NCBI RefSeq assembly: GCF_037975245.1
Contig: NC_092566.1
Location: 16,837,001-16,901,000 of the forward strand
DNA length: 64,000 bases
DNA from: Apostichopus japonicus
Taxonomy: Eukaryota; Echinodermata; Holothuroidea; Aspidochirotida; Stichopodidae
Reading direction: 5' to 3'
The position numbers and the translations under genes are program-made. The notes under the pieces are model-generated. The model searched no databases and had not been told where the DNA came from. It saw nothing but the letters and a program-made list of their open reading frames with translations. Shown here one piece after another: positions 21,601-63,411 of the stretch. Numbering within the stretch: the stretch's first letter is position 1; every line of letters begins with the position of its first letter.

Positions 21601-24600
21601 TATTAAAAATATATTACATTTTACGGATGGATGATCATCAAAAAGATTATGATTAAAAAATAAAACATTTGCAAAGTATCTATATACTATAATGACATCA
21701 CAGACAACACGCTGTGATCCACTTGTTGGAGTATAGTTGAAGGTTTGACCTATCAAAATAATATCGGTATAACATTCAATCAACCACATCTCCGAACTAG
21801 GACCAAGATATATAGACGATTTTTTTTTTCTTCTTTAAAATAACATGTCATTTGGAATATTCTATAGGATGAGTTTGACATTGTAGAATGTCAAACGAAT
21901 ATCTCTTTCGATTAATGATAGCATCATCAGCTTGTGACTAATTCAAATCAAATGTTTGATTTTATTTTCGTTTTATGATAATTATGATAATTAAATTATT
22001 AAACCCAAAGGACGACTGCTTGTCCACGAGTGGGGCCATTACCGTTGGGGTCTATTCAATGAATACCCGGACCCTATAGCCGATCCAGATTTTCAGCAGT
22101 CATTTTATCACTCTCCAACTACGGGCAGATTCGAGGCGACACGGTAAACTGTTTTTATTATATTATTACATTTTAATATTATATATATTTGATTTGGTTC
22201 ATATTTTTCTTTGCAACGATGGTTACATATTGAATGATGATGCAAAAAAAGATTTTGATTTTTGTTGTTGTAATTTTTGTTTTAGAAAGGGGGGTGGGGG
22301 TGGCATCTTCATTAAGTCACAAACAAACACCCGGTTTAGATCCGATTCGATCCAATCTGAATAAAAAAAAACAAAAAAAAAACCAATAGCTGAGTTTCTC
22401 GTGTACTACAACAGCCTTAATTAAAGTGTTAACAAATAGACAAGAATTATATCTTTTATATTTATTCCTTTTTTTTAAGGGGGTTGTGCAGACGAAAATT
22501 GTCGAATCTCCGGTTAAAACTTTGTTTACATTAAGAAAAAAATGCCACCAAAACAAAAGAGGGTATAAACTGAACTTCTAAAAGTGTTCAACTGACGGAG
22601 TGTTTACAATCAAATGAAATCATCAATTAGTGACTAAATTAAATTGAGTTTTAATGAAAGTATAAATTTCGCTTCGTATAAACTTTCTGGTCATTCTCTA
22701 TCAAGAGAGAAAGTTACAGCAGTGCTTTAAGGGAAACAATTTCTGACAAACTTCTTTCGACAGCTGAGCTATCAGTTCAACATGAGGTTATATTTTCCTA
22801 AATATACACCAATATCGGTACCTCAATTGGGGGGGGGGGGGTTATATTGATATAACGGGAGTGCATATAATTACTTTGTCGGCAAACGCTTTGGAAAAAA
22901 AGGTGTTATGCAAAGACCAATAAGTCAAAAGCCTATACAGCTATATTTGTTTTTGAGATTTGAATCATAAATTTATCACCAGGTTGTCATGCATGACTAT
23001 TTACTTTTAATGTTGGTTATCATAAAATTACTTGCTCTGCAAAGATTTTTATACAAGCAATCAAGTGTCAGGCGATATATATTTATAATTATATACATAG
23101 TTTTTTTATATAAATTGAAGTTGGAAGTTGTAAAATTCTTTTGATCATGTGGACTATTGCCAATTAGTTCATGAGATAAGAGGTACGTTGTTTAACTCAT
23201 TTTGATTCAATGAATAAACATTGTTTTTTTTCCTTACCATTCTTAAATATTGCCATACTTCGTTAATTTGTCCTCTTCCGTTACATTAAAATGTTTAATA
23301 AATATTGACTTTAAAGCTGTAGTTTGCTTTGTGCAGTAATTGTTTGTTTTTTGTCGATTTACCCAATATTTGTATTAATCACGTTATAATAAGTTTTAAA
23401 GTGGTTTGGCCAGGATATTCTATCTATACCTAACCATGTTCAGCACATTAAACTAGTATACATACAGTTGAATAATGTATACACCGATCATTCAATGTAA
23501 CAAAGAGATCCCATTTCATTAAAGCCACATGACTATAACATGATTTATACCGATTTCTTTATAAATTAAAGGAACTTATATTCCAACCAAATTAATGCAA
23601 ATATGAACGTTTTTGACAAACAACCGAATGCCGAATGCATTTAATAATTTCGTTTTTCTTGTGGCGAGTTTAGTGCAAGACTATAAGCGAACAGATTAAT
23701 CGTTGTATAATATGGTGCTATAACAGATCGATAGACTGAATTACATTCACGGCCCGGTTTTCATTTACGCATGCGCAGTGAACTTTCACCCTCTTTTTCT
23801 CCTCTTCTTCCTTCTTTGCCCTCCCAGGTGTTCTAGTGACTACACATCTTACAATCTTGTCTACGACGAAAAGAAATCCACATTTCGATTTTGCAATGGA
23901 AACCAAAATGTTGGGTATGAAGATGGCTGTATTAGCATACCTAGTACTTCTCAACCTAGCATCAGTGGTTCTATTATGTATGGTTACACCAGTATACCGG
24001 AGGTATATACATATATTTCTTTAAAAAAAAAGTATGTCAATTTTGCTATGATCACTATATTTCATATATTATTAAAAGTCGGTTAAATAGGGTCCAGTCG
24101 AGGGTGGGGTAGATGACGGGAGCAGGTTCAGGGGAAAAGCACGAACTTGGAGGGGCCACAGGACAATGATTTAAGTTGGGTGAACTAAAAAGTTACCTTA
24201 AAGCTTCCCAACAAAGTGCTATGTGCATTATGTCCTCCTTTAATTACATTTTTTGGAAGAAAATCATTTAAAAGAAAAAGGGACACTTTAAATTTACTAA
24301 AATGGAAAAAGAGTACTTTTTATTACTAAACAGGGGTACTTCTCATTTATGAAGAGGGGCAGTTGAGGTGGGGTTGTGGGCCGGCGGGAACACGTCCTAT
24401 GTGAACCCTTCTAAACAGCCACGTATATCTATTGCAGGTCACTCAGTTTTGTGATAACGACACATCAGATCCTAGCAACTATCACGTGACCGAAGCTCCT
24501 CATAAACACAACCGTCTCTGCGATCTCCGGAGTAACTGGGAAGTGATGAGAGAACATCCAGACTTTCAAGGTTTGCAAAAATTTGAATTATTAATTTTCA

Positions 24601-43400: not shown

Positions 43401-46400
43401 AATGATATTCAATATTCTTATATATGTTTGTTTGATGTTTAGTCCTTTTTAAGAGATTTATATGTTCTTATTTTTTGAAGAGTTCTTTGTAAACAACATG
43501 CATTTTCATGCTTTTGAAAACTGCACGTACCCGCGATTGCCTCTTTAAATAGAATCGGTCGCAGGATATCAGTGTATAAATATTGAAGCACCTCTGTCTT
43601 GAAAACGTTCCTGTTTATGAACATTGACGTTATGAATAACGTTTTATGAACTGTTATGGACTGTATATTTCAGTATATAGGACAATATTCCAATTATAAT
43701 GTTTGAATGCATAAACAACTTTTGGTCTTAAAATACATAACGGAATTGTTAGAGAAAAACCCCACAGGAAACCATATAAATCATGCGTTTATGCATGTAT
43801 AGGCTATTTAACTATCGTGCAGCGTGGCTCGTTTACAAAAGTATATATATGGTTTACACGCATAAATGGCGCTCAATTATAACACATCAAACAAGCATGT
43901 GCGTACTTTCCTGTGCTTCGTATTCTAACTAATGCAGTTTTCGTTTTTTGTTTTTTATCTACAGAGCATGTTTAGCGACGCATCTTCCTACTTGTATAAC
44001 GCCACAAGGCAACGTGCCTATTTTAAAAACGTCACAATACTAATACCTCAAACGTGGAACGCCAGTTGGGCTACGGCGTCCCCCGTAAACTACACCTACG
44101 ACGCCGCGGATATTATCGTTGTTCCTCTTGGACCAACTCTTTCAAACGCGTCTTCCTTGCCGCCGCCTCCACATTGCAAGCACTTCGAAGGATGCGGCAA
44201 ACAAGCTGCTTACATCCAGTTTACATCCGATTTTCTGACCAGAAATAACACCAAGCAATACTACGGAAACTTTGGTGAGTTGCATTTATACGCCTTTCAA
44301 TTTATATTTTTACATGTACCGTATTATGCACATTACGTTTACTCAGGCTACACCAGTAACCATGCATATTATATATATAAAAAAAATTAACAAAATTACA
44401 AAATATGTTTCATATGGCAACTAAGTGCGTTTTTGCATATCATGTGATTACGTCATGTTTTGAATCATACACATTCAATTCTTCCAAGTTTAAAGGTACA
44501 AATATGTATGCGTCACAGAACTGCGTAATATATTTAGTCTTTCTTATAAAAGGAATAACGTACAATAAATATATTATTTGATCCAATCAATGAAGCCATG
44601 AAGCTGGTAGTTGGACAAATTCAATTTTGTTCAATATTGGTCCTATACATTTTTTGTAAGCCTGACTTTGCTATAGTGCAATTAATTAGATAGTGGTCTT
44701 ATTATTAACATTTGAACGCAAATGCGTTCTTAATCATCCATCCGTAGTGGCAAAATTGAGAGACCTTATAATCACGAAGTGTAAGAAAAGTTTGTCCGGT
44801 ATAAGTAGCCTGCAGCACATGTTGCAATTTACCGTAGCCCCTAGCGCTAACTATAAATATTTCAATGGGATATTAATTACCTATTTGCATGGGCGTCAAC
44901 AGGTGGGGGACGGGGGGACATGTCCCCCCACGTTCAAAAGTGGAGGGGATATCATATCATTTGTCCCACCCACTTTTCAGAGTAGTTATTAAAAAAAATC
45001 ACATGCATATGCGCGATTTTCTATTTCAGGTCAAGAAATCTGGACTCCCTGGGCCCCTGCTACCTATCACTTGCACCGTCATTTATCTCCCATTCTCCCA
45101 ATATCCTAAATCTGCCCATTTAATTCGTTCGGGGGGGGGGGGGGGGGGAGACCATTCGAAAGTGTATTGAATCTTGCACACATGTTGTTTGTATGGGTTC
45201 CAAGGGATTAGGTAAGCCATACAGGTAGATGGTGATGAGTTACTATGTTCATATCACTACCTCCAGTCCCTTGGACTGGACGGACGAATAGGGGTGTAGG
45301 GGTTAAGTAATTTAGATCTTTATTGTTGAGTGCCGGCTAGGCGCTACACACGCTCTGCGCGCGGTGCCTTTTTCTGATTATTATTATTAAAGTACCTGGG
45401 CACATAACAACTGACGTCTCGCACCTACATGCATGTATTATATATACCACTCCACTCATCCCGGAGGTGACGGCGCCACCTTTTCAATATTTCGTTTGAG
45501 ATGGACGCTGTGTAATTCGTCTCCCTTGGTGTCAGAACGGCATCTTTCTACCAGTACTTTCTGTCGGAATTTAGTTTTGTGAGACAAAATTTCTCCTCAC
45601 AGATCTGGTTCTGATGTAACTAAAAACGACTCAGGAAGGCCGTCTCCTGCGATCTAGGGGGTCTTATGTACCCAAAATTTTCTGGTACGCTACGCGCCAA
45701 CCAATGGTGGCGCTCCGCTTAGATAGTATAGTGTCCCCCTCACTTTCTGAAACCTGCTGACGCCCATGCCTATTTGTGTAGGCATACGTGATGCAATTCA
45801 TGTTCATTTTATTTTCTTATCAATTTGATACATGTGTTTGTAATTTATATAACAATGAGCACGTGAAAATTGAAACATAAAGCAACACGTACGTGACAAA
45901 ATGTCGCCAGTACACTGTAAGAAATGTACGTAATTTTACAGGAGTTTTGCCGCGTGAAATAACAGTCGATCCTGTTTTTCTACGTTCTTACGGTATTTTA
46001 CCCTAAAAGTACAGTGCTCAGACGAACAATTACGTAAACATGGTAAAATAACATTATATAATGTTAATGTATCGTCATCCACTGTTATTTAACATTAGCG
46101 TATCGTTATTGTGTAATTTAACTGTAGTGTGTGTAAATGTACGACACCTTTCTTGTTAATTCACGATGTAGTAACTTCAATTGACATTTGAAGGACGTAA
46201 AATGACGCAGAAATTGTAAAGTAACAGGCATTTCATCATCTTCTGTTAATTAACAGGGAAATATCAGAATCTTGTAAGTTTACGGTTGCAATCTGTAATT
46301 CAACACTGTGTTTTACGGAAAAGTATAAACATTTCAAGCAAGTATAGGCCTGTATTATATACACTTGCAAGACGTATAGGCCTATGCTAATGCAAACATC

Positions 46401-49400
46401 GTAGACCCCTTTCCAATGAGTCCCGATATTGTAGTGTTCAGTACAAAACCCCGCACCGAGTTCTAAAATTTCCTATACGCTTGTGAATTCAACTATGAGC
46501 GCTGTTTCGGTGGGTTTTTCACAGTTGTCTCCCCTAATCATGGAAAATCAGTTTTTGTACCGTATATTACCTATATGTAGTTGATGTTACTGTTATTGTG
46601 TTATTATCATGGGGGAAATATCCTGCTAACGTGTTGAAACAGTGATTCCGTTTACGGCAGAGGCGGCGGATATAGGTTGGACACATAACCGGAATCCCGC
46701 CGCCATGGTTTACGGCACAAAAATACAGTGTTCAAGTAGCCTCAGCATTAATAAGGTAAAAGGGCAAAGTATAGTCATCTACGTAATGTAACTTAACGGT
46801 ATACAAGTCGGTGCGGACTGGCCATACGGACACTTGGGTTGAATGTCCGGTGGGCCAGTGGGCTAGGTAAAAATGGGCTGGGTTGTGCCCCCCCCCCCCT
46901 CTCAATTAAAGTTCTGTGTTGCCTTAAGTCCTGTGAAATGTCATATTCGGTGATATAGGAGATATTTAGCCAAACAATTTGGTTGTAAGTTACGCGCCAA
47001 CTCGAGTGGCGCTCCCAGATAGTAAGGAGCTTAGATTGCACGATGCGGACCTCTCTACGACGAAAAGACTTGCGTTCTGCGCATGCGTCTACTTCACCAT
47101 CTCGTTTTCCCTGAGATTTTACACCGGGTGTCAATTTTTACATTGTACTCAAAACGAAAACTTGAGATAGCGTGTGACGTCATATGTCGCCTACTCTGAC
47201 CAGGCCAAGATAACCACATGACTGTCATTTTCCCCGTAGTAAGAATCTTAAGCGCAAAGCCAACAGGACCATTGCGACGACGTACACTGTCGGTTTACTT
47301 CCCGTTGCACTACTCCGCGCCGTGCAATCTAATTCTATATTGTCACGAATATGTAGCCCTCATCGGGTAGGTCACCTAATTTTTGCCTGACGGTATCACT
47401 GTAAAAATCCGTCACTAGCTGTTTCATAATACTGCGGCGTGAAATATCTGTTATTTAGCTTTCTTTTAGATATTTAACCTAAACGTAAAGTGCTCAGACT
47501 ACAATCACATAAATATAGTAAAATAACGTTAATTTATTGTCATCCTTGAATTGAAATACCGCTTGAATTTGTTGTGTATCAGTTATCATCACAACAAGTT
47601 TCAACTTGATATTACATTGGCTTTAGTCTCGCCTATTGGCTACGTTGATCACATGGTGTTATTGCGCCAACCAGGAGTCTTTTAACTAACTTCCTTTTCG
47701 CGGCGTTTTTCCTTACTATCCTTCGTTCGTATTACTAATGCATGCGCCTCGCCGAGGCAAGTTACAACATGCAGGATCGGAACAGTACATACGTATGTAT
47801 GTAGAGCGTGTACCAAATTATATCGAGCGCTGAGCGAGAACGAGTAAATGTACACGTACGTACGGACAAACATAAATAAATGTGAGTGCTGTCCCTGTCG
47901 TATCACTTCGTAGTTCGTCTTACATGAATATCCAAGTTTCAGATTCAGTTGGACAAGAATGCAGTGTCAAACAGGCAAGTGATTTATTGAATTTCCAAGA
48001 TTACAAGCATGAAACCTGTATGTGATACTTGCAATTTGCAATGCAAGAATATCACACATTACGTTAATCACTGTAGGACCCATAGGCACATTCGAAACGC
48101 ACGTTTTACTTGCTGCATAACTGGTTGTATTCGAACGTTTTATACATACAAAGCGTTAGTGTCACATATTGCAAGGAATCACACAGCAGCAAGCTATGAT
48201 CAAGGGGATGGCCATGATGAAGGCCTAGGCTCATATCGAAATGTAGGTGTTGGTGTCAAGTGTATGCTAGAATTTTGCCAACACCAAAGCTCTGATATCA
48301 AGGAATTGATCTCTCACCTAAGAGGACATATTGAAAGTGGTTTAAAGGTAGATTGCCCATTCGAAAATTGTAAAATACAATTTGGCAATAAGAAATCATT
48401 TTCATATCACTTGTCTCGTCATCATAGAAATTATAAAGTAGGTGATGTAGCCTCAAGGTATGTTGTGACTGTGAGCCAAGGCCCCACAGATGTGGTAGGT
48501 GAAGCCATATACCCTATAGGCCTACATAATGAAGACAACTCTGACAGAAATGAATTAGATGAACAAGACTCTGTTGAAACTGAGCAGGAACAGGATCTCA
48601 AAAGTCGTACTAGTAGTAGCCATGAAGGGGATACCGTCGTTTGTGGTGAAAACCCCTCTGAAAATGTAAAAGAATTTACACAAAGCGTTGCACTATTCCT
48701 GTTGAAACTGCAGTCCAAGTACTTGATTCCTAATTCAACCATTCAAGTAATTGTTGAACAGATGTGTTTCCTCAACCAACTTGGAAATGAGAATACAAAA
48801 AAATGTATTGTAACACAACTACAAACAGCTGGCATAGGTCTAGGCCTAGCTGATGAAAGATCTAATGAACTTGCTCAAGATATTATGACTGATGTTTCAG
48901 AATTAGGATGTTCTCTTGCACCTGCTAGTGATTCCCAACATTTTCAGTCTCCAGAATGTGGAAAACTGCGATCTGGATATATGAGAAAAAAATATTGGAA
49001 AGAGAACTTCAAATACGTGAGCCCAGAATCAATATATTTGGGAGAGCCAAATGGTGGCAAGAAGGAATATTGTCACTATGTGCCAATTTTGGAGACACTA
49101 AAACTCATGTATGAGGATAAATCTGTTCAAAACCATATCATACCAGTAGATAAGGAAAGAAGTGGGTATAGTGATATTCAGGATGGGAAAGTATTTCGGC
49201 AGAACACATTTTATCAAAGAAATCCAGATGCTTTGCAAGTTATGCTGTTTCAAGATGGGTTTGAAGTTGTCAATCCATTGGGATCTTCTAGAAACAAACA
49301 CAAGATGCTTGGAGTTTATTGCACACTGGGTAATATTGATGCTAGATGTCGATCACAAATTGATCCTATACAGTTAGTTCTGTTATGTAAGGAAAAGACA

Positions 49401-52400
49401 TTGAAAAAAATTGATTCTCAGAGGGTTTTTTCAAGGCTCATTACAGATTTAAAGCATTTAGAAGAAAATGGTATTGTACTTAAAAATGGTTATGTTGTTA
49501 AAGGGACTGTAGTTGCAATAATTGGAGACAATCTAGGATCCCATTATATAGGGGGTTTCTGTGAAAGTTTCAGTTCTCACTATTATTGCCGTTACTGCTT
49601 GCTTTCAAAGATAGAAATTGCCCAAGGGCTTCCTTACGTTGAAGGAGTGTATCGCACACGTGAATCATACAGGAGAGCTCTACAGTCGCTGGATGACGAT
49701 GGTGAATCTGTGCATCATGAGGGAATTAAATTTGATTCTCTCTTTAATTCTCTGACATATTTTCATGTAGCCAGTCCTGGGCTTCCTCCATGCCTTGGCC
49801 ATGATTTATTTGAGGGTGTTGTGGACTATGACATGGCCCTTTTTATCCAGTATTTTGTAGCTAAAAAGTGGTTCAGCTATGAGAATTTAAACAGAAGGTT
49901 GCAACTGTTTCCATTCAAAGGTCGAGACTCTGCAGATATGCTGACTAGTGCAGTCAAGCCTCAAGGAGAAAGGATTGGTGGACAAGCAGTGCAAAACTGG
50001 TATTTCTTGCGTTTTTTCCCCCTTGTTGTATACGGGCTAGTTCGTAACATAAAGGACCCAGTATGGCAGTTACTTCTGCAACTGAAGGAAATTGTTGAAA
50101 TTATTGTGTCTCCAACTTTGCAATCATCTCAGGTAGCTTTTCTGAAAGTATTGATAGAGGAATATCTTGAAGGGAGGGCCGACCTCTTTCCTGAAAGGAA
50201 GTTACGACCCAAGCATCATTTTCTACTTCATTATTATTACCTTATTTTCATGTTTGGACCTTTGATCAAGGTTTGGACTCTCCGCTTTGAAAGTAAACAT
50301 TCTTTCTTCAAAAGATGTGCCAGATACTGTCAAAACTTTGTCAACATTACTTCAACATTGGCAGAAAGGCACCAATTACTGCAGGCATATTCCTTTCATG
50401 GACGTTTGTTTGCTGATGATGTTAAAGTAGCAAAAGGGATCCCATTCCACCCAGAGTTATATGCCGAAAACATCCAAAAAGCTGTTCTTGCTGTTCAATT
50501 TACAAGAAAGACTTGTTTGTGATAATAAAGGAAGATGAGGACTGGACATTTGCTTGCATTATGCTAATATTGGTGGTAAGAGAAAAAGTTGTTTTTATTG
50601 TGCAGAAATACCAGACTACCCATGTGCATGAATATGGCTTATACCAAGTGAAAAACAGGGCAGCAGATTCAAACCCTGTTTCGTGTGTGGCATACTCAGA
50701 CCTTCTAGATTATTGTCCTTTGTCAGCATACAAGGTTGATGGGCAATACATGCTTTCATTGAAAAACAAACCCACCAATATGTAGATTATTTTACAGGCT
50801 AGACAGTTCCAGCACGGCTTCTGACACTGATACTGATAGAGATACTGTCATTATAACAGACATAGAGAGAGTGTGCTGGAATAGTGTACCTGACATAAAC
50901 GACGAGCAATTAAGAAGACTCTTGGCAAAATTAGAGGCAGCTGGTGTATTGACTACAGATGATCTGGAGTACATCAGAGAAGATGATATTTTGGGAATTG
51001 TCACACCCATCCAAGCAAGAAAACTGATCAAAGGATTTAAAAAAGGTAGGAACTTACTCAGTACCATCTGTTTTACCTTCCCCATCAACGCTGTAAAGTG
51101 AAAACAGTCTAAGAAAATAAGCGAACAAATGTGACCATGTAGATTTTCAATATAGCAAAACATTGCAAACTAGGCTACATGTCAAATTTATTCCATCAAA
51201 GTTCACTGAAAAGTTCATATTTTACGTCAACTGTACAGTCAGGGGTAAAGTGGATTAATTGACCAATCTGCACGCGCAACCAGCAAATTGGTGGTGACAA
51301 ATGTCTATATTAGCAATTAAATCTGAGCACAAAAATCCTCACATATACTGACAGTAAGGTCCATGCCGTATTTCCATTGAAACAGCTTGTGTGAAATTGT
51401 AATAATTTCATTGGACTAGTTTGTATTGCGCAACCGGTATCAAAAAACATGCAGCCTCCGAATTTTTGAACAAAACTTATATAAGAACTGCATTGTATTG
51501 ATTAGGATCGTTACTTTTAACGTGTGTATGCAAACATGTATGGTTGTCCCATGGACAGTCTGCAAATAAAGTTGTCCCAGCCTAAATTTACGATCCGAGG
51601 CAAACAGACAACAGCTGCTTTTAAGCCCTGTATCTGCATACAAAAGTTACTTCCAGGTGGAAGGGCTTTAATCAGAAACCTTCTACCTAAGTTTATATGT
51701 TGGAACTGTGTTCTAGCTTCAAACCTGCGAATGTTTGTAGCTTTGCGTGGTTATCATGTTTATTATGATAGTAGCACGGCATGTTGTACTCGTCACCCAG
51801 TATAGTCACATATTGCTGCTGTCTCTGTGCCTGAAACTACGTACCCCCTAGCCCAGCGTACAGTGCAGCTACTTGTACTGCGCACACCAGGAAAATGGCA
51901 GGAACTTTGAGGAATTCTAGTTAAAAATGTTAAGTTTGGTTTGAGCCGCAGCCAGTATTTAGCTAAGCCTAGGCATAAATGTTACAGGCATCTAGCCTCT
52001 AGGCTATACCTGGGCTAAAACAGCATTGTGTTGTTGCATGTAGCCTAGCTAGCTATAATACCTGGGCTAACCCCGTTTTAATTGTGTTACGGCATGTACT
52101 GCATGCACTAATTATAATGTTACTGCACTGTTAGTGTTAGTGTGTTACACTATTATAAAAGCCTAAGTTGGGCTAAGAAGTCAAACCTACACCAAGCTTA
52201 GCCAGATATAGTGGTACAAATGCAAACCATTACCCCGCAACTGTTAGCTTGACAATTTGAATGTAGCTGGCTGCATTAATTGTGCACTGTCCATTCACTC
52301 TGTTGAACCATATTGGCTGGCAAAACGAACAAATTCTAAACCCTGGCTCACGTCAGTGCTGTATAGCCACAACCGACAGTAAGCAGTCGTACTGTGCGCA

Positions 52401-55400
52401 TTAATATGCAGGGCCTTTAGCTGAATTAATATGTTGTGTTCTCAACAACACAGAATACATCTATTCCCTCTATTGTGTAGCTGCTTTTTAAGTGACTACT
52501 CTTCTAGAGATAATCCTAAACTGTACAACTACATAGCTTTGCAGAGATGGATTATCATTCCTCTTGGCTTTGACATGGACTCCATTATCCCTAAATTGTG
52601 CTACAAGGGGCACATATATGATGGATTGCTACTGCATGGTTGGGAGAGAACTTTAACCAAATTTTTACATTATCACAATCTTGACAGGTTTATGATATTC
52701 AATGTTGTCACAGAATTTGAACCACCTGTTTTTGGTAATTTGTTAATTAAGGGGTTCCTACATATTCTCAAAGTCAGTAAATCAAGCTCTGTTAGCCTTT
52801 AACTAGCTGTGAATTTGTTGTTTATGTTATCAAAAGTACAAATCTGCTTATTTTTCCTAGTGCATGACTGCATGTACCAATGGCCCACGATGTAATGTAT
52901 TGTATTCTCACTTACATGCATGTGGACTTAGGGCCTGCAAGTTATGTAAATATTCAATTTTCACAAATTAAACTAAGGCTGAAGGAATCTATGCCATGCA
53001 TGGCGATGGCGCATGTTTGTATGCGTGGGTGGTGTGTGTGACGCCTTGCCTTGTAAACACGATATCACAAGAAGTGAAAATCGCTTGAACTTCAAACTTA
53101 GTATACTGGTAGCCTGTGGTGAGTAGATAACCCTTAGTGTTTTTCATGGAGGTAAAAGGTCATTTGAGTTCAACAGCTCGGGTCAGCAGGGGTCAAATTG
53201 TGAAAACCTTGTAAACATGATATCACAAGAAGGGAAGCTTGGACAGATCTCATATTTGGTATGGGGGTGTACCTCATTGAGTGCAAGAAGCCTATTGTTT
53301 TTGGTGGAGGTCATTTAGGTCAGCAGGGGTCAAATTGTGAAAACTTTGTAAACACAATATCTCAAGAAGGGAAGCATGGATCAGTCTCATATTTAGTGTA
53401 TAATTGTACCACATTAAGTACAAGAAACCTGTGGTTTTTGGTGGAGGTCAAAGGTCATTTCGGTTCAGCAGGGATCAAATTATGAAGACTTTGTAAACAT
53501 GATATCTCAAGACGGGAAGCTTGGACAGATCTCATATATGGTATTAGGTGTACCACATTGAGTGCAAGAGCCGTATTCTTTATGGTGGAGATCAATTGTC
53601 ATTTGCAATCATCGGGGGTCAAATTTTGAAAAGCTTGTAACAACGATATTGTTACATGGGAAGCTTGGACAGATATCATTTGGTATTTAGGTGTATAGAG
53701 TGTAAGAACCTATTATTTGTGGTTGTTAATGGTCAGTTGTGGTCACACTGCTATTAAATATCTCAAGAATGGGAGTTGTCATTGTGAATGTATTGTTTAT
53801 CACATCTCAATGCTTTATGCTGTATTACTAAGATCAAGTATGTTGTTAACCCTCTCTATACAGTACATCAGTGAATGCAATGCATTTTTACATTTTGGTT
53901 AAAACGGGCAATTGATCTTATCTTGTTCTTATTTGATCGTAGATGAAAGCGCATCAAATGCAGACTCATCACCATCGAGTAGTGGCCAGAGCCGCACTGC
54001 TAGCCGCTGGCAACCAAAGGAAGTGACGCTGTCTCTATCACCAGGTTCTACTTATTTTCTTCTTTTTTTATTGGCTAATTCTGTCAGCCAAAGGATTCTG
54101 TGCAAGAGTTCGCTAGTTTTTGACACTTAATTGTGGTTTGTCTGTGGGTTTTTATCCAATAATAACTTTTCAATGCTTGGAAACTCATTTACATGATTTC
54201 TAATGTGATAAACATTGTTTTTTGTATGCAATCAAGTTGGTGCATGTGCTTGTCTGTATGTGAGGCCCTAGCTTGTAACACAATATTTCAAGATATATAG
54301 GTAACTACAGCAGATTTCATATTTGGCATGTGGCTTCCCCATACTACGGTAAGCACAAAAACCCTATTGTTTTGGTAGAGGTGAAAGGTCATGTGTGGTC
54401 AGCAGTGGTCAATTTGTGAACACATTGTAATCGTTAACACAGTATTTCAAAAATGGAAACTTGGATGCTATATTAGGGGTTTGAATGTACGTTATATAAT
54501 GTACAAGCACCCCATTGCTTTGGTAGATGTTCCACATTGAGTGTAAGAGCCTATTATTTTTGGTGGAGGTTAGAGGTCATTTGTGGTCAACAGGGGTCAG
54601 ATTGTGAAAATGGTGTAACACAATATCTCAAGAAGGGAACTTGGTATGTAATTAGCCTTTGGGTGATGTAGCCCTTGTATTTTTTGAGATCATGAACAGA
54701 GGTGAAAGTCTGAACCTTGTAAATAAGATATCTGAAAAAGTAGAAGTTGCTCAATTGAACTTGAAACTTGCTTTATGTAGGTACCCCTTGGTGAGAAGAT
54801 GATACCTCCTACTTGTATAAGGCAAAGACCTTAGGTAAACCCAAGACCCTTGCATTTTTCATCATTTCTGGTCAGCAGTGTGTCATGTAGAAGAACCTTG
54901 TAACAGAAGTTGCTGCTCATATTGGCAAGGAATCACCAAGTCTTTTGACTTTCTGGTTTATTGAATTGTCAATTGAAAGCATCTGTAAAGATACAGTAAA
55001 TCTTTGTTTTTATATATTTTGTAGGTCAGCTTGTGTTGATTGATAAATGTGACAGCAATCTGCTTGTGGAAAGCAAACCTTATTGGCACTGTTTACATTG
55101 AATGACTTATATCTGAGTTTGTGTGTGGGGAGGGGGGACAAATCAATGTTTATAAGAGCTTCCATATTCATCCCCTGTCCCATACTGAATTTTGTATGAG
55201 CTACATACTGTACTATTATTGATTCAAACATTCAATTGTTTAAATCTGCACATATTCTCTAATTTGTTCCTTGAATTACAGTTGAAGGAAGCAAGTCTGC
55301 CCCAAGTAAGGTAATAGATTTGGATATGATGTTGAGCAGAATTCCAAGAAAAACAATACATATTTTGGAGAGAAATGAAAGACTCCCTCCAAGAATTCGT

Positions 55401-58400
55401 AAAGAATTTGTGCGACTAGTGGTAGATAACATTATTGACTGCAAAGGAGCTACATACCCTAGAACAAGTGAGTTGCGTTTATATGCCAGCCAAATAGTCA
55501 GCAAGTATAAAACACTTGGAGACCATCTTGATGGAGTGGTAGTTGGAACAGGATACGAGAGCTTACTGAAACAATTCGTCAATCGAGTGGACAATCTTGG
55601 GAGATCTGTTGTTCAGGGATCACTGAAAAGAAAAGCATTGGCAGGATGCAAAAGTCCCAAAGAGAGACTAGCAGACCAGTACGGGTGTGTAAATTGGCAG
55701 CCTGAGTCTTTGCCGGAGGGTGAATCTGGGGAATCTCAAAGAAAGATTATGAATGAGCTGAAAAGCCTGTGGGAGTCTGGGACTGGAAAAACAAAGGATG
55801 TAAAGAACAAAATGATACACACATATGCTACACAAAGAAAGGACATTAATGAAAAAGACTGTGTTCTGACAGATATCATAGAAAACTGGCCTTTTTTGTT
55901 TGAGGAGGAGTACTTGCTGGCTCACTTCAAGAAACTTATGGGAATTGACATCATGGAAAATATGTCATCTAACTTTGAGCATAGAGTTCCAAAGCTTTAC
56001 AGATACTTTCAACAAGTAGCCAAGCCAAAGATTGAAGCAACCCACAAAAAGATACAAGATGCAGTTGACAAGAAAGAAGACAATAGCCCTCAAGTAATGG
56101 GACTGCTAATGCTTCTGAGCGAGCACCTAGGAGAGGATCTGGGAGAGCACGTAAAGAGTACTGACAAGGTAAGCAAGGAACTGTTTCTCATAATTTCAAA
56201 ACTGTTATTTTCCTTACTCATTACCGGCAACTAGCTTCCACTAGCATGTTATGCCTCAGGTAAGGTAGAGTGCCCAGAGACCAGCAACCAAGAGAGGGGT
56301 GGATTTAGGGACTATAAAACTAGAAACAGTTGTGCACCCAAGGGGCTAAGTGTTTGTGAAAACATAGTCTGACGGGTTTTACTCAAACATAAAGAGAATT
56401 GATCATACAGGGCCTCCTCATAGGACATGCACAATTTCTACAGATGCTCTTGAATTGTTTTATGTAAAAATCAGGCCTCAGCTTTATAAAGCATATTATG
56501 CTCTAAATTGATTGAATTTGTTGCCAATATTTCATTTTAACCTATCTTGCCTTTTCTCCCACTGCTGACCATTGACTGTATCAATTTTCTTCAGGAAAAG
56601 AGTGCTGACACATGCATTGAGGCCATGGACTTGCAAGGCCCTGTTGTTCTGGTTGCACATGGTAAGTGTTGTTTGTTTTGATTGTTCATGCTACTCCATA
56701 GTGTACTGATCAGTGACTAATTACCACACTAAATACGCTACTGGAATTGTTCCAACAAAAAATATGTCTACGTAACCATTCATTTATGTCAATATCAAAA
56801 TATGGTACGTACAACCATGCAGTTTACTCAGGACTGCATCATGATTGGACACCATGCATGTTGGGTAGTGTCTGCAAAGGTCATACAGTGGTCAAATATA
56901 TAACTTTATACTTACTGTAAATTCCTTGTGTGTGTATTCATCAAGCCATGCTATTTATAAAATTGTATGCTTTGCCCCATCAATCTCTGATGCTTTGTAA
57001 TAGGACTGGCAAATTAAAGGTAGTCAGGACTCGCCCAAAGGCAAAATGATAACAGGGCCATCACCAACTTTCTCTTGTCTGCAACCCAAAGTTCTATCTA
57101 AGCTCCGCCCATTATTTACGTTGGTCTGCACTCTTCCCATTGCAACTATATGTGAAGTCCCTCCCATTGTTTACAACTCACTCTCATCCAAGTAAACATT
57201 GACCAAGCCAGATCTGGTTTCACCCCCTGGTAAGCATCAGCAGGCCTTGTCCTTAGCTCCCCTTAGGGCAATAGAAAAAGTTCTGCAAGTCTCTTCTTTG
57301 GACCTGACAACTAAATAATTATGACCAAAGCTTACCAGACTCACCTAACATGGTATGTACACAGTACTACACACTAAAGCTGTAATTGACACCTTGTAGT
57401 ACACAGTATATATGCTGGTATGATTTGCACAATGTAGAAATGCATGCAATTTCTGATAATTCAATATTTTCTTTTCAAAGGGAAAGTACTGACAGCAACT
57501 TTGTTTTCTCTCGCCATTGGAGGGAAAGAAACGACTAAAGTAACCAATCCTCTATCGGGTGTGTGCGTATGGTTTGCAGCTTATTATGTCTTCAACCTAA
57601 AATATCCAGAAAAGGCGCCGGCGCTCTTGGAATTTATCCAACGGTGAGTAGTTATATTGTAGTCAAGGACGACCACTGCCTCGTCTAAGCGTCAGGAAAT
57701 AATGGGGATTGTAATTATTGTGCAATCCTAGGAATCCCTGTAAGCTTTACATGTCCCCACTCTTGGGCAAATTGCCCTTATTTCACAAGCAGTTTCCCCA
57801 TATCAAATTACACTACAATCCGACATAACAAACTCAGCATGCTTAAACGAATTTACTCCACCATCAAGTCCCAGAGTTATGAAGGTTGGGTATTAAAAAC
57901 CATTAAAAGTCCCTACCCTAGAGTGGACAATGCAACTGGTAATACTGACCAATATTGCCACTAAAATAGAGGTCATGAAGGAAGTATACTTTGAAAGTGC
58001 ATAACCATCAAATCGTTTGCCCTATCCACTTTAGGTGCAACATCTTTAATCAAGTTAAACATTTTTAGACTATACTTCAAAATGTTATTGCGTCCTGATG
58101 AATTTGGATGATATCTCGCTCAATATTTGAGTATGGAAGACTCAAAAAAGGCAAATGTTTAAACTCAGTTAAAGTGTAATTACCAGATCCATAAACAACT
58201 ATTTCCTGTAACACATGTACTTTATCCCAAAATACCATGCTGCAAAATGCCAACCTGCCTATGGCCATCATGGACAATTGATTATAAAAGGTTTCCAATC
58301 CTTACTATAATACATGCATGGGTATTTTACTATATTGTTATTATTATATGATTATATATAATTTTAAAGTTTTCATCCAACATGAGGAGATACCATTGCA

Positions 58401-60560
58401 TCCAAATATTTGAAATTGCCCAAGTACTCTATAGTGATGCATTTGTGGTGTTGCTTGATTAAAAAATAAATACTGAATAATGATTTTGTGTTTCCTGCAG
58501 GATCTTCCTTGGAATCAACCCGGACTGTGGGACTAAGAGACAAAAGATGAAAGGAAAGAAATCTGCTGTCAACCCAGTAGTGCTTAAACTTGCAGGCGAG
58601 ATGAGTAACTTTGAAAATGACTGGGCATTGTAGGTCCCAGAATGGGATACATCCATCATGGTTACAGAACACTCTCAAAACTTTTTTTTGCTGGATCAAG
58701 TTTGTATTTAAAGTTATAACACCTCTCTTTTTCAGTACTTATAGAGGTGGTTTGTCTCAGATATTAGGGTAAATAGCCACACATTGTGTGCTACACAGAT
58801 TTTGATTGCTTGTTTTATTTATTTAGTTTGTTATTTACTTTTCATTTTTGTCCTGTTTCCATAAAGCTTGTAATTGTTTTGAAAAGTTTAAGTAAGTAAT
58901 GGTGTGCTATTGCATACATGTGATTTTACCTAGCTGGTTACTTGAATAGACAAGTTTTTTTTCCAATTCTATAACTCCTAAAGTGATTCATGTGAAATCA
59001 GTATTGCTTCTAGGAAAGATGTTAGATCATGAATCTGTTATTTAAGCAGATGTATGTGGTTTTCTGTTCTGGATATACACAATACTGTTACAAATACAAA
59101 TTTGCACTAAAATATTTCAGAAAGTTCTAGTTGAAGAAAATTTTGGCAGCTATGACATGTGTTTCTGATATCAAGACATTTCTGAAAGGTGAAATCTGGT
59201 TATGGGGCTACAGTATGATTTCATTTTTATGGAGATCACAGACCAAAAATAATTTGGCTAGCCTATCTTTTGATTTGAGAAATTCCTTGTCCATGTTAAA
59301 AATGCTAAATTTTAGCATAATTGATTTTATGTAATGTTTTTTTGATAAGTTGCTGTTAAAGCAAAGTTAGTATGGGGCAGTCCTTGGTTTCTGATGTCTT
59401 TGCTATTTCACAGCAGCATTCTCAGGCTGGCATACAAAGTATGTAAAAAAAAAACTATATTAAGGTGTTAAATCAAGTACAATATCTTTTATGAAATTCA
59501 TTTCACCGTTCACACTGCCTACAAATTGACTTGCTTTGACATATATCTGTTCATTTACAGGAGGTATTTGCGATGGCATTGTAAGTGTCAGTACAATACC
59601 GTGTTTCAGGATGTTTTCATTGTTATTTCTATGTTCCTTTCAGTTAATAAAGGATATATGAAACATTTACTCACAGTCCACATGTTTTTTTTTAATAGTA
59701 CATGTCTGCTAGTTCAAGTCACAGCTAGTAAATGAACTTCACGAAACGTTTTTATACAGTCTATGTTATTTTACAGTATAGTACCGTCCGCCAAAGTAAC
59801 AGTATAGTACCGTTTTTTTACAGATTTTTTTCAGTAAATATACGATGGGAAACGTTTTTTCACGGTCCGTGTTATTTTACGGTGGACTACCTTCCGCCAA
59901 ACTGACAGTAAAATGCCGTTATTTTGCAGATTTATTTCAGTAAATATATGATGCGAACCTTTTTTTCACGGTCCCTGTTATTTTACGGTGGACTACCTTC
60001 CGCCAAACTGACAGTAAAGTACCGTTTTTTTACAGATTTATTTCGGTAAATATACGATGGGAAACGTTTCCCCACGGTCCGTGTTATTTCACAGTGCCGT
60101 TTTTTTACAGAAGTGAGATGCTGTAAATACATGACGGGAAACGTCGTTTCACAGTCAATGTTATTTTACGGTAAACTACTGGCGTCCAAGACTGCCAGTA
60201 AGTTACCGTTTTTTTACAGATTTATTTTTTACAGTGTACGTACTACTGTACCTGTTGGTTAAAACGAACTTCAAAGTTCAAACAGTCGGAACATTCAAAA
60301 TTGACAACGGCATAAAATGTAACAAGGAACAATCAATGAAATTAAGAGCATAAGAAATTAGTTTAAGTCCTGGATCAAACATTTAAAGGTATTTAAGGAG
60401 TCGGCATTCTTTCACTCCTTTCGGACTACTCCTTAGTAGCAACATATGAAAATGTTTTCTGATGATACTGGGTATTACCACCCTCTAAGAATAGATTATT
60501 TCGTGTGGTATACCTAAGAGAGTGGTTATGTATATTGTTCGCGTGATGGAACATGTCCAC

Positions 60561-61256: not shown

Positions 61257-61953
61257 TATGATAATGATATAAAATAATGAAGTTCGATTAACAAAGGAAC
61301 ATATATACTAACGTTTTCGTTGCGGTTCTAAAAGATTATTGCAGTAGCAAACAATGTAATAAATATATTGACTAGAAATATATTGAATATTCCATTCTGA
61401 TATACTTATAGGTAATTTGTTGTTGATTTATCATCGAAACTGATACTGCTGGAAGTAAGTTTTGCTGTCAATGTTCTCTGTATATAAATGCAACATTTTA
61501 TGTAGAAATATGAAAAATTTCCCTCTGCGATAAACGATTTAAATATGATAGAAAATAATAAGAAAGAAACAAAGACATTTGCCATTGACGTGTTTCGAAG
61601 ACATCTTTCATTTTGCTGTTGCAAGATGCATTTACCAAAATATTACCAAAGTTTGAAAATTAATATCTGTGCGATATAAAGTGCTATGGGGATGTGCAGG
61701 AAATCCCTTTTAACATGTTATAGACATTAACAAAAAATAATACGAACGGGAAGACTAAATAATTCGATTCTCCATAAATTTTTAGAAAGAAACTTATGCA
61801 AGACGCTCTTTTTCATACAGGTCGCCTTCTGGTTCACGAATGGGGCCACTTCCGCTGGGGACTGTTCAACGAGTACCCAGATGAACAAGCCGATCAACAA
61901 TTTTACAGTGAATTCTTTTATTCTTCAATACGAGAGGAGTATCAAGCAACAAG
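38229..61953 (+). CDS. CLCA: Second CLCA family gene, first three exons; runs off right window edge
   Basis: Exons: 38229-38453 (75 codons), 43965-44274 (310 nt) and 61821-61953 (133 nt). Exons 2 and 3 have exactly the lengths and phases of exons 2 and 3 of the CLCA gene at 18637, so the two are tandem paralogues. Exon 1 has a hydrophobic signal stretch at about residues 19-37, then [19 protein letters not shown], the CLCA N-terminal block. Exon 2 shares [13 protein letters not shown] with the paralogue. Exon 3 carries the zincin motif HEWGHFRWG at residues 184-192. Translation could start at either of two Met codons (38229 or 38235). No further exon was found up to 64000, so the VWA and later domains must lie downstream. 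Intron 2 is 17.5 kb and contains a hAT-like element and a large nested DNA transposon on the same strand; exon splice sites look intact. Confidence 0.9.
40337..40508. repeat. TA microsatellite in second CLCA intron 1
   Basis: Alternating TA with several interruptions, preceded by a short ATAC repeat. Confidence 0.95.
43018..43215. mobile_element. Short MITE with about 30-bp inverted ends in second CLCA intron 1
   Basis: Left arm TATGGAACGCGAAAAGGG, right arm ending TTTTTCGCGTTCCATA; the similarity goes on inward through AAACTTATTTCGT. TACGTG lies outside both ends, a possible 6-bp target duplication. The middle repeats the word GTCTAAACT several times. Non-coding. Confidence 0.7.
44888..45768. 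mobile_element. Non-autonomous hAT-like element with perfect 8-bp target duplication, in second CLCA intron 2
   Basis: Left end CATGGGCGTCAACAGG and right end CCTGCTGACGCCCATG are inverted copies (15 of 16). The 8-bp direct repeat CCTATTTG flanks it at 44880-44887 and 45769-45776. The 881-bp inside is non-coding and contains one copy of the dispersed GCGCCAACC-ATGGTGGCGC sequence also found at 15.6, 16.5 and 17.4 kb, which ties those fragments to hAT-like elements. Confidence 0.9.
45913..47560. repeat. Two similar left-end sequences of the nested transposon
   Basis: The first about 150 bp from 45913 recur in diverged form from 47397: CACTGTAA start, GCGTGAAATA, AAAGT.CAGTGCTCAGAC-like word, GTAAAATAAC, TATTGTCATCC-like word. 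So there are two candidate left ends 1.48 kb apart. Between them is a degenerate copy of the dispersed GCGCCAAC family near 46935-47020. Confidence 0.65.
48009..50522 (+). CDS. Transposase-like protein with four C2H2 zinc fingers and candidate DDE core
   Basis: Uninterrupted 837-residue frame from ATG 48009. The N-terminus has four C2H2 fingers: C5-x2-C8-x12-H21-x3-H25, then C35-x4-C40-x12-H53-x4-H58, and two more at about residues 84-106 and 115-138. A low-complexity acidic stretch follows (about 175-215). The C-terminal two thirds matches, from memory, a protein group seen in fish, cnidarian and echinoderm genomes and usually left uncharacterised. Conserved-looking blocks are [12 protein letters not shown] (Asp507), a CRYC pair, [15 protein letters not shown] (Asp599) and [20 protein letters not shown] (Glu761). 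The last two resemble the second Asp and the final Glu regions of CMC transposases, so D507/D599/E761 is my candidate catalytic triad. The likely job is DNA binding by the fingers and cut-and-paste catalysis. Alternative: a domesticated nuclear factor. The natural C-terminus seems to continue in another frame. Confidence 0.75.
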   Translation: MKPVCDTCNLQCKNITHYVNHCRTHRHIRNARFTCCITGCIRTFYTYKALVSHIARNHTAASYDQGDGHDEGLGSYRNVGVGVKCMLEFCQHQSSDIKELISHLRGHIESGLKVDCPFENCKIQFGNKKSFSYHLSRHHRNYKVGDVASRYVVTVSQGPTDVVGEAIYPIGLHNEDNSDRNELDEQDSVETEQEQDLKSRTSSSHEGDTVVCGENPSENVKEFTQSVALFLLKLQSKYLIPNSTIQVIVEQMCFLNQLGNENTKKCIVTQLQTAGIGLGLADERSNELAQDIMTDVSELGCSLAPASDSQHFQSPECGKLRSGYMRKKYWKENFKYVSPESIYLGEPNGGKKEYCHYVPILETLKLMYEDKSVQNHIIPVDKERSGYSDIQDGKVFRQNTFYQRNPDALQVMLFQDGFEVVNPLGSSRNKHKMLGVYCTLGNIDARCRSQIDPIQLVLLCKEKTLKKIDSQRVFSRLITDLKHLEENGIVLKNGYVVKGTVVAIIGDNLGSHYIGGFCESFSSHYYCRYCLLSKIEIAQGLPYVEGVYRTRESYRRALQSLDDDGESVHHEGIKFDSLFNSLTYFHVASPGLPPCLGHDLFEGVVDYDMALFIQYFVAKKWFSYENLNRRLQLFPFKGRDSADMLTSAVKPQGERIGGQAVQNWYFLRFFPLVVYGLVRNIKDPVWQLLLQLKEIVEIIVSPTLQSSQVAFLKVLIEEYLEGRADLFPERKLRPKHHFLLHYYYLIFMFGPLIKVWTLRFESKHSFFKRCARYCQNFVNITSTLAERHQLLQAYSFHGRLFADDVKVAKGIPFHPELYAENIQKAVLAVQFTRKTCL
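50513..50785 (+). pseudogene. Displaced C-terminal tail of the transposase-like protein, in another frame
   Basis: A frame overlapping the end of the 837-residue ORF by 10 nt reads on to a stop at 50783-50785, with [20 protein letters not shown] and then a [15 protein letters not shown] segment. I remember homologues of the zinc-finger protein ending with this kind of sequence (a 'fvvQk...tey...glY' block and a 'DyyPLp.Y...g' ending). So this looks like the true tail, thrown out of frame by a small deletion or frameshift near 50505-50515. A short unrecognised intron is possible but no good GT/AG pair is seen. It has no convincing start codon of its own. Confidence 0.5.
50798..58633 (+). CDS. 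SAM-domain protein (SAMD3-like family), second gene of the nested transposon; 5' exon not found
   Basis: Exons: 50798-51045, 53943-54044, 55282-56168, 56595-56661, 57481-57643, 58501-58633. All inner borders are GT/AG and the phases agree (1,1,0,1,2), giving 532 residues and a TAG stop. Exon 1 has an acidic/Ser start, then a SAM-like helical domain ([20 protein letters not shown] followed by [12 protein letters not shown]). Exon 3 is a large helical block starting near [20 protein letters not shown]. The last exons give [18 protein letters not shown] and [10 protein letters not shown] recognise this order from proteins labelled SAMD3-like in fish and other animals; their function is unknown. 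The first exon begins with the last base of a codon and contains no Met, so an upstream exon must exist, perhaps shared with or lying before the transposase ORF. SAM domains usually mediate protein self-association; a transposition accessory role is inference. Confidence 0.8.
53040..54730. repeat. Diverged tandem repeat (about 130-160 bp unit) in introns of the SAM-domain gene
   Basis: Units recur at about 53055, 53210, 53344, 53490 and 53633, then again at about 54270, 54430, 54610 and 54717, on both sides of the small exon at 53943-54044. Each has CTTGTAAACACGATATC-like sequence, AAGAAGGGAAGCTTGGACAG, and a stretch rich in AGGTCA. Confidence 0.75.
59735..60236. repeat. Right subterminal repeat array of the nested transposon
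   Basis: About five related units (starting near 59737, 59848, 59951, 60056 and 60133; spacing roughly 75-110 bp) share GATGGGAAACG, then CACGGTCCGTGTTATTTTAC, then CCGTTTTTTTACAG. The last word is repeated at the terminus itself, as in subterminal transposase-binding arrays of CACTA elements. Confidence 0.8.
60564..60717. repeat. TA microsatellites next to SINE
   Basis: Two short TA runs and one long one (60648-60717). The last is the 3' tail of the minus-strand SINE. Confidence 0.95.
60755..60888 (-). mobile_element. tRNA-derived SINE copy, best preserved
   Basis: Read on the minus strand it gives CATAGCCTAGTGGTTAGGGTG (box A region), then GGTTCGAATCCCGG (box B), then the body GCTGAAAGTTTTTTCACTG. 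Its 3' end points left into the TA repeat at 60648-60717. It lies just outside the right end of the large nested transposon. Confidence 0.85.
61045..61164 (+). mobile_element. tRNA-derived SINE copy with TA-repeat tail
   Basis: Box A is degenerate (GAGTTGGTTAGCATC). Box B GGTTCGAATCCCGG and the body GCTGAAAGTTTTTTCACTG match the minus-strand copy at 60755-60888, so the two form a head-to-head pair about 160 bp apart. A TA repeat follows. Confidence 0.8.
61163..61258. repeat. TA microsatellite (SINE tail)
   Basis: Alternating TA, broken once by CCCATACA. Confidence 0.95.
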
Positions 61954-63411
61954 GTAAGTTTTGCACTTTCAAATAACGCAAAAGCACGATTTGCTGGAAG
62001 CAAATTTGTTTCAGCTGATAAAAGCCTGATTTTGATATCCGTTTTCGGTGGATTTTTGTTAGTATAACTCCATAGGGTTGTATATAAAAAGTTTGGCTAT
62101 AGTCAAGCTTTATTAGAGGTAATGAACTATTTCATATAAAGTAATAGTCAACTTTTAATTTATCATTTTTGAACTTTGAATGTGATTATTTGAAAACTTT
62201 GAATACAGTTGGCGACGAAATCTTGACAACCGAAAGCAATCATTAAAATCCAATTTATTGGTTCCGATGCTTTGCACTTTTAGCAAGTTTAAAAGTAAAC
62301 AATAAATTTGAATGAAGATAAAATATATATATAACAATATGGATGGTCTTCAAAGGAATATGCACAATTCCAACCATCCTTAGTGGTCTCTATGACATAA
62401 GTTGTAACTGTTATCAACAATTTCCCTAAAACAGCTAAAAAAATCTCTGTTCCATCCTTGCGAGATATCACATTTTAAATGTATTCTTTTCTTTCAACAC
62501 ATATAAGGCTGAAGACTTGATCAAGTCTAAACACGACATCCTCGAGCAGCATGTGTTTCAATTATCTATGTTCCTATCTATTTATTACTATATGTTTATT
62601 TTCTGTAATTGGGCTTGTGTTTTGCAAATACTGAAACTAAAACGTTGGACCTATTAACATGACCTTTAACGGTGGTTTCAGTGTTAAAACTGTCAAGAAC
62701 TTCTCTTGACAATATGACAAGAAAATTAGAGAGAAAGTGAGGGGGCGGGGGGGGGGGGGGTGGGCAGATCCGAGTAACATTAATGACGCCCGTACAGGCA
62801 TGCGCATATAAACATAAATGGCAGCTTCCGGACAAGACTGTTAAAACATGATTTCTCATAAATTAAATGATTGGCCTTTTTTGTATGGGGGGGGGGGGGG
62901 AAGTTCTATGCACAATGTATCATTGCCATATACAAGCCATATATATCATGGTAGGTGTTGTGTATATAAATCCGCGATGTTGAAATATTTCATAACATAT
63001 TTACTGTATAGGAATCACATTTGGCTGAAAGTCAAATTTCTATGGCACGTTTACCTTAACGACGCAGTTTGTTTTGCTATAAACATGTTAGCAAGTTACA
63101 CCCAAGATTATAGACTCTATCATAATTAACAAGGTTGGGGAGTCAACAACTGTATAAATTGTATGATACCAACAATGAAAGAAAGAAGTCAGAGATAACC
63201 GATATTGTAAAATCATCGGTAATAGACGTTATCTTTGAAGCACCCGCCTTCTAAGCAAATATGTCGACGTGTATAGTGTATAGATAACACAAAAGGGAAA
63301 ATAAGTGTGCATGATGATACTGGACAAAATGACGATAAGTGTGTGTAAATATAAGATTACTCAACAATCCACTGAAACCGTTTGACGTGGTGAACAACTG
63401 TACTTGAGTGA

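What the first reader, a model, noticed from the sequence alone, without database searches (positions are those of the whole stretch)
45913..60236. A two-gene CACTA/CMC-like transposon nested in a CLCA intron
One continuous insertion explains why intron 2 is 17.5 kb here and 1.0 kb in the paralogue. Seen: CACTGTAARAAAT inverted ends, TA on both outer sides, a subterminal repeat array, and two same-strand genes. Known: CACTA/CMC elements have CACTR-type ends, short target duplications, subterminal repeats and often two proteins. Inferred: the zinc-finger protein is the transposase and the SAM-domain protein is its partner. In most genomes such proteins are listed as uncharacterised host genes, so a bounded copy would show that they belong to a mobile element.
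Basis: partly seen in the sequence, partly recalled or inferred. Interest (0 to 1): 0.88.

Follow-up and report, generated by a model that had tools for sequence, protein, structure and literature searches.

The report
Two-gene jumping gene in an intron
A 14.3-kilobase DNA transposon of the CACTA-like kind, probably in a sea cucumber genome, sits inside an intron of a chloride-channel-type gene and carries a cut-and-paste enzyme gene plus a second gene that travels with it, so both are easy to mistake for ordinary animal genes.

Summary
Window 45913-60236 (14,324 bp) is one insertion. Two further copies in the same genome (C10, C15) have the same two ends in unrelated flanks, each copy with its own 2-bp duplication (TA, TA, CA). 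Gene 1 is a DDE transposase with N-terminal C2H2 fingers; the D, D-C(2)C-H(3)H-E signature of the CMCT clade is invariant in 9 aligned rows, and weak Pfam tnp2 and DUF4218 matches fall on its relatives. Gene 2 (at least six exons, SAM-like start) is not chance company: 38 of 53 gene-1 clusters have it downstream on the same strand, 0.24 expected. GTAAAATAACA is concentrated at both ends. Best reading: a cut-and-paste element in which gene 1 cuts the ends and gene 2 does the job of TNPA in plant En/Spm; the first half is well supported, the second inferred. Corrections: ends are CACTG, not CACTA; the duplication is 2 bp; the window's transposase is truncated where 52 bp are missing; the SAM label is only partly supported. 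A new member of a known kind.

The parts
45911..45912 (.). left target-site duplication TA
   Evidence: C10 has TA/TA and C15 CA/CA at the same place
45913..45925 (+). left terminal inverted repeat CACTGTAAGAAAT
   Evidence: same end in C10 and C15
45954..46226 (.). left subterminal motifs GTAAAATAACA, 4 sites with at most 1 mismatch, both orientations
47015..47332 (.). nested MITE-like repeat with inverted ends (47031-47049 / 47314-47332), foreign to the element
47397..47540 (+). second, degenerate copy of the left end (CACTGTAAAAATCC...; 74% over 94 bp to the outer left end)
48009..50522 (+). gene 1: C2H2 zinc-finger DDE transposase, truncated here; catalytic D at 49254, D at 49527, E at 50289
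   Evidence: numbering from P0001, which starts at 48012
50490..50491 (.). place where the window lacks 52 bp present in C10 and C15; the C10 frame stays open to the stop that lies at 50783-50785 here
50798..51045 (+). gene 2, first recognised exon (SAM-like stretch); no start codon found
53943..54044 (+). gene 2 exon
55282..56168 (+). gene 2 main exon, used as probe P0003
56595..56661 (+). gene 2 exon
57481..57643 (+). gene 2 exon
58501..58633 (+). gene 2 last exon with stop codon
59727..60227 (.). right subterminal array of about 106-bp units with 5 GTAAAATAACA sites (at most 1 mismatch), all on the - strand
60224..60236 (-). right terminal inverted repeat CACTGTAAAAAAT
   Evidence: same end in C10 and C15
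60237..60238 (.). right target-site duplication TA

Best explanation
[quoted passage not shown] Shown: bounded copies with fixed ends and 2-bp duplications, two genes that travel together, a transposase-type catalytic signature, motif arrays near both ends. Inferred: gene 1 recognises the CACTG ends, excises the element and joins it to a 2-bp staggered target. Inferred, with less certainty (about 0.6): the gene 2 product, with its SAM-like start, binds or bridges proteins on the GTAAAATAACA motifs near both ends and so assembles the ends or regulates the element, as TNPA does for plant En/Spm. The window copy is probably no longer self-sufficient because its transposase frame is cut where 52 bp are missing.
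For: Three copies with the same ends, different flanks and 2-bp duplications TA, TA, CA. Gene 1: 70 matches in the genome (54 of 384 candidates scored), D/D/C(2)C/H(3)H/E invariant in 9 of 9 rows; Transposase_21 in 2 of 9 rows, 5.3e-4 and 0.0057, and DUF4218 in 1 of 9, 0.07; 12 of 58 genome matches of Transposase_21 and 5 of 66 of DUF4218 lie on gene-1 relatives. Gene 2 downstream on the same strand at 38 of 53 gene-1 clusters, 0.24 expected under uniform placement; the two genes diverge in step over 6 families (Mantel r 0.87, 3 of 720 permutations as high) with nonsynonymous below synonymous differences in all 5 between-family comparisons of both genes. GTAAAATAACA, at most 1 mismatch: 4 in the left 600 bp, 5 in the right 600 bp, 2 in 11,639 bp of interior, 3 in 49,676 bp outside. 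TNPA precedent: PMC2613891 and PMC8195511, passages.
Against: The window protein itself matches no transposase family in Pfam at E up to 1, and no gene-1 relative reaches a cut-off. The 15 places over the Transposase_21 cut-off are not reached by gene-1 searches. The terminal repeat alone is near chance. No empty site was found in this genome. Ends and duplications were read only for this family of three, not for the related families. 15 of 53 gene-1 clusters and 24 of 62 gene-2 clusters have no partner within 25 kb. No transcript data; no start codon for gene 2 in this family. The single-sequence structure model was useless (pLDDT 34).
Confidence: 0.85

Rival explanations
1. Gene 1 is the CMCT transposase, but gene 2 is element-borne cargo with another job, for example counteracting host silencing, and not an end-binding partner.
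For: No DNA-binding family was recognised in gene 2. Fungal relatives are reported to carry other useful cargo genes such as TET/JBP (PMC12730594, passages). 15 of 53 gene-1 clusters show no gene 2 within 25 kb.
Against: The pair is kept in order and orientation at 38 of 53 clusters and the two genes diverge in step; motif arrays at both ends suggest that some protein reads them.
Confidence: 0.3
2. The two genes are host genes (a gene family spread by segmental duplication), and the bounded appearance of the segment is a coincidence of repeats.
For: The window family has only three copies; many copies keep long open frames; the end repeat alone is near chance.
Against: Homology in the stretches read ends at the terminal repeats in copies on three chromosomes, each with a 2-bp duplication; transposase-type catalytic signature; near-identical copies of related families on different chromosomes.
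Confidence: 0.03
3. The element is a compound: a segment with a new left end (45913-47396) was added in front of an older element whose left end is at about 47397, by end duplication or a nested insertion, so that the present unit is a secondary product.
For: Degenerate second left end at 47397 (74% over 94 bp, E 2.75e-12); a C17 relative (70% in gene 1) has left-end-like sequence at a similar distance from gene 1 and pieces of the intervening region.
Against: The C10 and C15 copies have the outer end too, so the outer ends are the ones that moved. This adds to the best explanation and does not replace it.
Confidence: 0.5

Closest known systems
Plant CACTA elements En/Spm, Tam1, Tgmt* (PMC2613891 and PMC8195511, passages read)
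   Same: 13-bp terminal repeats beginning CACT, asymmetric subterminal repeats richer on one side, a tnp2-type transposase gene and a second multi-exon gene, insertion in a host intron (Tgmt*).
   Different: CACTG instead of CACTA; 2-bp instead of 3-bp duplication; the second protein shows no Transposase_24 or TNP1 match in the lists; shared 5' exon and alternative splicing not shown here.
SmTRC1 and related animal elements (PMC1636069, passages read)
   Same: Animal CACTA-superfamily elements with Transposase_21 domain; 2-bp direct repeat at 7 of 14 copies as reported there.
   Different: Their terminal repeats begin with CCC; no SAM-like partner was seen in the passages read.
EnSpm elements of animals, e.g. 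zebrafish (PMC9341512, passages read)
   Same: EnSpm/CMC class in animals; CACTG-type ends are recalled, from no call.
CMCT clade as defined in PMC12730594 (passages and section 3.1.6 read)
   Different: Position inside the clade (EnSpm or a neighbour) not determined; ESTA also makes TA duplications but is described from fungi.

Membership tests
[quoted passage not shown]
   D415, D506, C526-x2-C529, H736-x3-H740, E760 invariant in 9 of 9 rows; definition from PMC12730594. First D is assigned by position, not by experiment.
CMCT clade (CACTA/EnSpm-Mirage-Chapaev-Transib) | 5'-CA..TG-3' termini (in most cases) | tested here: met
   CACTG..CAGTG in 3 of 3 copies
CMCT clade (CACTA/EnSpm-Mirage-Chapaev-Transib) | 2 to 5 bp target-site duplication | tested here: met
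   TA, TA, CA in 3 of 3 copies
CMCT clade (CACTA/EnSpm-Mirage-Chapaev-Transib) | Sequence similarity to tnp2 transposases (Transposase_21) | tested here: inconclusive
   2 of 9 rows match, 5.3e-4 and 0.0057, below cut-off; window protein does not; 12 of 58 genome matches fall on gene-1 relatives at 18-22 bits
CMCT clade (CACTA/EnSpm-Mirage-Chapaev-Transib) | Place in the tree of CMCT transposases | not tested
   No reference transposases of the clade were at hand
Classical plant CACTA (En/Spm type) | CACTA at the termini | tested here: not met
   CACTG
Classical plant CACTA (En/Spm type) | 3-bp target-site duplication | tested here: not met
   GTA/TAC, GTA/TAC, ACA/CAC do not match as 3-bp repeats; 2 bp do
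Classical plant CACTA (En/Spm type) | Subterminal repeats at both ends | tested here: met
   GTAAAATAACA 4 left, 5 right, 2 in the interior; about 106-bp array on the right
Classical plant CACTA (En/Spm type) | Second gene related to tnpA / TNP1 | tested here: not met
   Neither Transposase_24 nor TNP1 is in the lists for gene 2 proteins
Classical plant CACTA (En/Spm type) | Both proteins required for transposition | not testable with these tools
   needs an experiment
SAM domain (gene 2 first exon) | Match to a SAM family over its cut-off | tested here: inconclusive
   SAM_TNK in 3 of 5 exons, best 3.2e-4; SAM_2 in 1, 0.0059; SAM_1 in 1, 0.11; CARD in 2, best 0.0054; for the window's own exon neither SAM_TNK (13.5 of 25 bits) nor CARD (17 of 23.9) reaches its cut-off

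The most novel reading that the evidence does not exclude
A deuterostome lineage of CMCT transposons with 2-bp duplications whose transposase carries C2H2 fingers and depends on a second, SAM-like, self-associating protein that assembles the two ends through a GTAAAATAACA array: an animal counterpart of TNPA with no sequence relation to it. Many uncharacterised or SAM-domain genes in animal gene lists would then be parts of such elements.
Probability: 0.45. Interest if true: 0.62.

Novelty: new member of a known kind. Interest (0 to 1): 0.42.

Why it matters
A bounded copy with two genes shows which host-like genes belong to a mobile element: both gene models have long open frames, gene 2 has proper introns, and both occur in dozens of places, so they are easily counted as animal genes. 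The fixed order of gene 1 and gene 2 across families that are 38-60% identical in gene 1 makes it testable whether animal CACTA-type elements also need two proteins, as plant En/Spm does, with an unrelated second protein. It also explains most of the length difference between the two CLCA introns.

Tried and rejected
Genome-wide count of the end 13-mer as copy number: rejected, because the eight loci read (L001-L008, all from C1:3.19-3.21 Mb) are tandem repeats (units of about 74, 366-387 and 441-518 bp) without a match to the element. The other places, including a dense run at C1:15.87-15.94 Mb, were not read.

Terminal repeat alone as proof: rejected as near chance. A 3-bp duplication: rejected in all three copies; a longer terminal repeat including GTA, shared by window and C10, is excluded by C15, which has ACA/CAC.

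Empty-site search with the joined flanks: each flank matched its own place, and 39 further matches all lie from query position 245 on, about 50 bp beyond the junction; none spans the junction.

Structure of gene 1 from a single sequence: mean pLDDT 34.1, no fold search made. Solved-structure searches: gene 1 profile matched C2H2 zinc fingers (best 1.2e-6) and no transposase among the 60 shown of 65; profiles of gene 2 gave one chance-level match each. Relatives in viral contigs: 30 pattern matches, none confirmed. Start exon of gene 2 in the window family: not found; three related families have an ATG in the same exon.

Literature searches for this gene pair or for SAM-like partners of CACTA elements: no listed title or abstract start described it; the listings were capped and only the papers named in this report were opened, as passages or one section. 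Repbase was not searchable.
Full report
WHERE. The window is G000:C6:16837001-16901000 of a 671,581,487-bp genome in 35 contigs. Size and longest contig agree with the Apostichopus japonicus assembly (671.60 Mb, 23 chromosomes, 34 scaffolds, longest 46.02 Mb; PMC10344927, passages; longest contig seen here 46,036,110 bp). The species is inferred from size, not proved.

THE INSERTION. CLCA exon matches at 43968-44306 and 61820-61954 pair with 20671-21036 and 22010-22144 of a paralogue in the same window, so the intron is about 17.5 kb here and 1.0 kb there. Two other places carry both ends. C10 reads ...GCTAGTA|CACTG and CAGTG|TACCATT; C15 reads ACA|CACTG and CAGTG|CACGCGT (only 3 bases of left flank were fetched for C15). 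BLAST homology stops within 7 bases of the terminal repeats in both. A 2-bp duplication fits 3 of 3 (TA, TA, CA), a 3-bp one 0 of 3. The left 400 bp and right 500 bp each find just these three full matches, plus one partial 73% match of the left end on C17, so the family is low-copy and no short derivatives appeared at that sensitivity. Identity to the window is 96.7-99.8% over the pieces compared; the middle parts of C10 and C15 were not all read.

WHAT IS NOT EVIDENCE. The 13-bp inverted repeat alone is close to what chance gives (32 pairs; 60 controls, mean 16.25, maximum 31). The whole-genome 13-mer count is inflated by satellite: the eight loci read have no match to the element.

GENE 1. 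The window's 837-codon frame (from the base after the ATG) is truncated. The C10 copy has 950 open codons, and the window lacks 52 bp at 50490/50491 that C10 and C15 both have. One search found 70 matches from 100% to 26% identity, with 54 of 384 candidates scored, so the count is a lower bound. Of 17 gene-1 locus pairs compared on one strand only, 4 match over about 5.4 kb at 98.7-99.9% and 3 in pieces at 97.4-99.5%; the other 10 gave nothing in that orientation. In a 9-row alignment (two rows from this family, one row without its N-terminus) D415, D506, C526-x2-C529, H736-x3-H740 and E760 are invariant: the arrangement given for EnSpm, Mirage, Chapaev, Transib, Plavaka and RAG1 in PMC12730594 (passages and section 3.1.6). 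Pfam gives Transposase_21 for 2 of 9 members (5.3e-4, 0.0057) and DUF4218 for 1 of 9 (0.07), all below cut-off, and neither for the window protein. Scanning the genome with these two models gives 58 and 66 matches; 12 and 5 fall on gene-1 relatives, at 18-22 and 16-20 bits; the 15 over the Transposase_21 cut-off are other loci that gene-1 searches did not reach. The solved-structure search matched C2H2 zinc fingers, best 1.2e-6, which supports the N-terminal fingers.

GENE 2. Six exons with AG/GT borders give one open frame of 532 residues to a stop at 58631-58633. The first exon shows no start codon in this family; in three related families the same exon has its own ATG. SAM_TNK matches 3 of 5 of these exons (best 3.2e-4) and CARD 2 of 5 (best 0.0054); for the window's own exon both are below cut-off. 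The main exon has no confident family. Genome-wide it has 67 matches, all 105 candidates scored. After merging pieces, 38 of 53 gene-1 clusters have a gene-2 cluster within 25 kb, all 38 downstream on the same strand; uniform placement predicts 0.24. 15 of 53 gene-1 clusters and 24 of 62 gene-2 clusters have no partner within 25 kb; divergence, decay and deletion were not told apart. Over 6 families the two genes diverge in step (Mantel r 0.87, 3 of 720 permutations as high), and in all 5 between-family comparisons nonsynonymous differences are below synonymous ones in both genes (0.24-0.50 against 0.74-0.83); synonymous sites are saturated, so no exact ratio can be given. In 5 comparisons of close copies the ratio runs from 0.13 to 1.86 on very few changes, with one undefined.

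ENDS. GTAAAATAACA with at most one mismatch occurs 4 times in the left 600 bp, once in the 600 bp after the inner left end, 5 times in the right 600 bp, 2 times in 11,639 bp of interior and 3 times in 49,676 bp outside; the stretch 46514-47396 was in no class. On the right it sits in a tandem array of about 106-bp units. Plant CACTA elements have the same asymmetry and their TNPA binds such repeats (PMC2613891, PMC8195511, passages).

INNER STRUCTURE. A second, degenerate left end lies at about 47397 (74% over 94 bp, E 2.75e-12). A C17 relative (70% in gene 1) has left-end-like sequence at a similar distance from its gene 1 and also pieces of the region in between, so the double left end seems older than the three copies. 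A foreign MITE-like repeat sits at about 47015-47332.

MECHANISM. Shown: bounded copies, duplications, gene pair, catalytic signature, motif arrays. Inferred: cut-and-paste by gene 1; end assembly or regulation by gene 2. I put the transposon with gene 1 as transposase and gene 2 as an element-borne gene at 0.85, and the TNPA-like role of gene 2 at about 0.6 given that, the rest going to a cargo role.

KNOWN OR NEW. It meets the three CMCT features tested with a clear answer (signature, CA..TG ends, 2-5 bp duplication). It fails two features of classical plant CACTA (CACTA ends, 3-bp duplication) and its second protein shows no tnpA-type family, so I do not file it there, although its layout is parallel. 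Animal members are known: SmTRC1, with 2-bp repeats at 7 of 14 copies (PMC1636069, passages), and zebrafish EnSpm (PMC9341512, passages). The nine literature searches named in Tried and rejected listed no paper that describes this gene pair; Repbase was not available, so the pair may already be implicit there. That many fish proteins annotated as SAMD3-like or uncharacterised resemble gene 2 is recalled and comes from no call.

Noticed in passing
47015-47332: A MITE-like repeat nested in the element. Its two halves match other places in pairs about 7.2 kb apart (e.g. C16:37823198 and 37830395), as if they were the ends of a longer, different transposon.
   Followed up: partly
47397-47550: Relic second left end inside the element, also suggested in a C17 relative.
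   Followed up: partly
L001-L008 (G000:C1:3189695-3207144): Satellite with units of about 74 and 366-387 bp that happens to contain CACTGTAAAAAAT; a second dense run of the 13-mer lies at C1:15874877-15936134.
   Followed up: partly
53049-54744: Degenerate tandem-like repeat of roughly 137-145-bp units inside a gene 2 intron.
   Followed up: no
60290-60479: Dispersed repeat in the right flank of the insertion, 39 further matches genome-wide at 77-92% identity.
   Followed up: no
G000:C11:3835198-3835650 and 14 further places: 15 places pass the Transposase_21 cut-off and overlap none of the gene-1 matches: other tnp2-type elements in the same genome.
   Followed up: no
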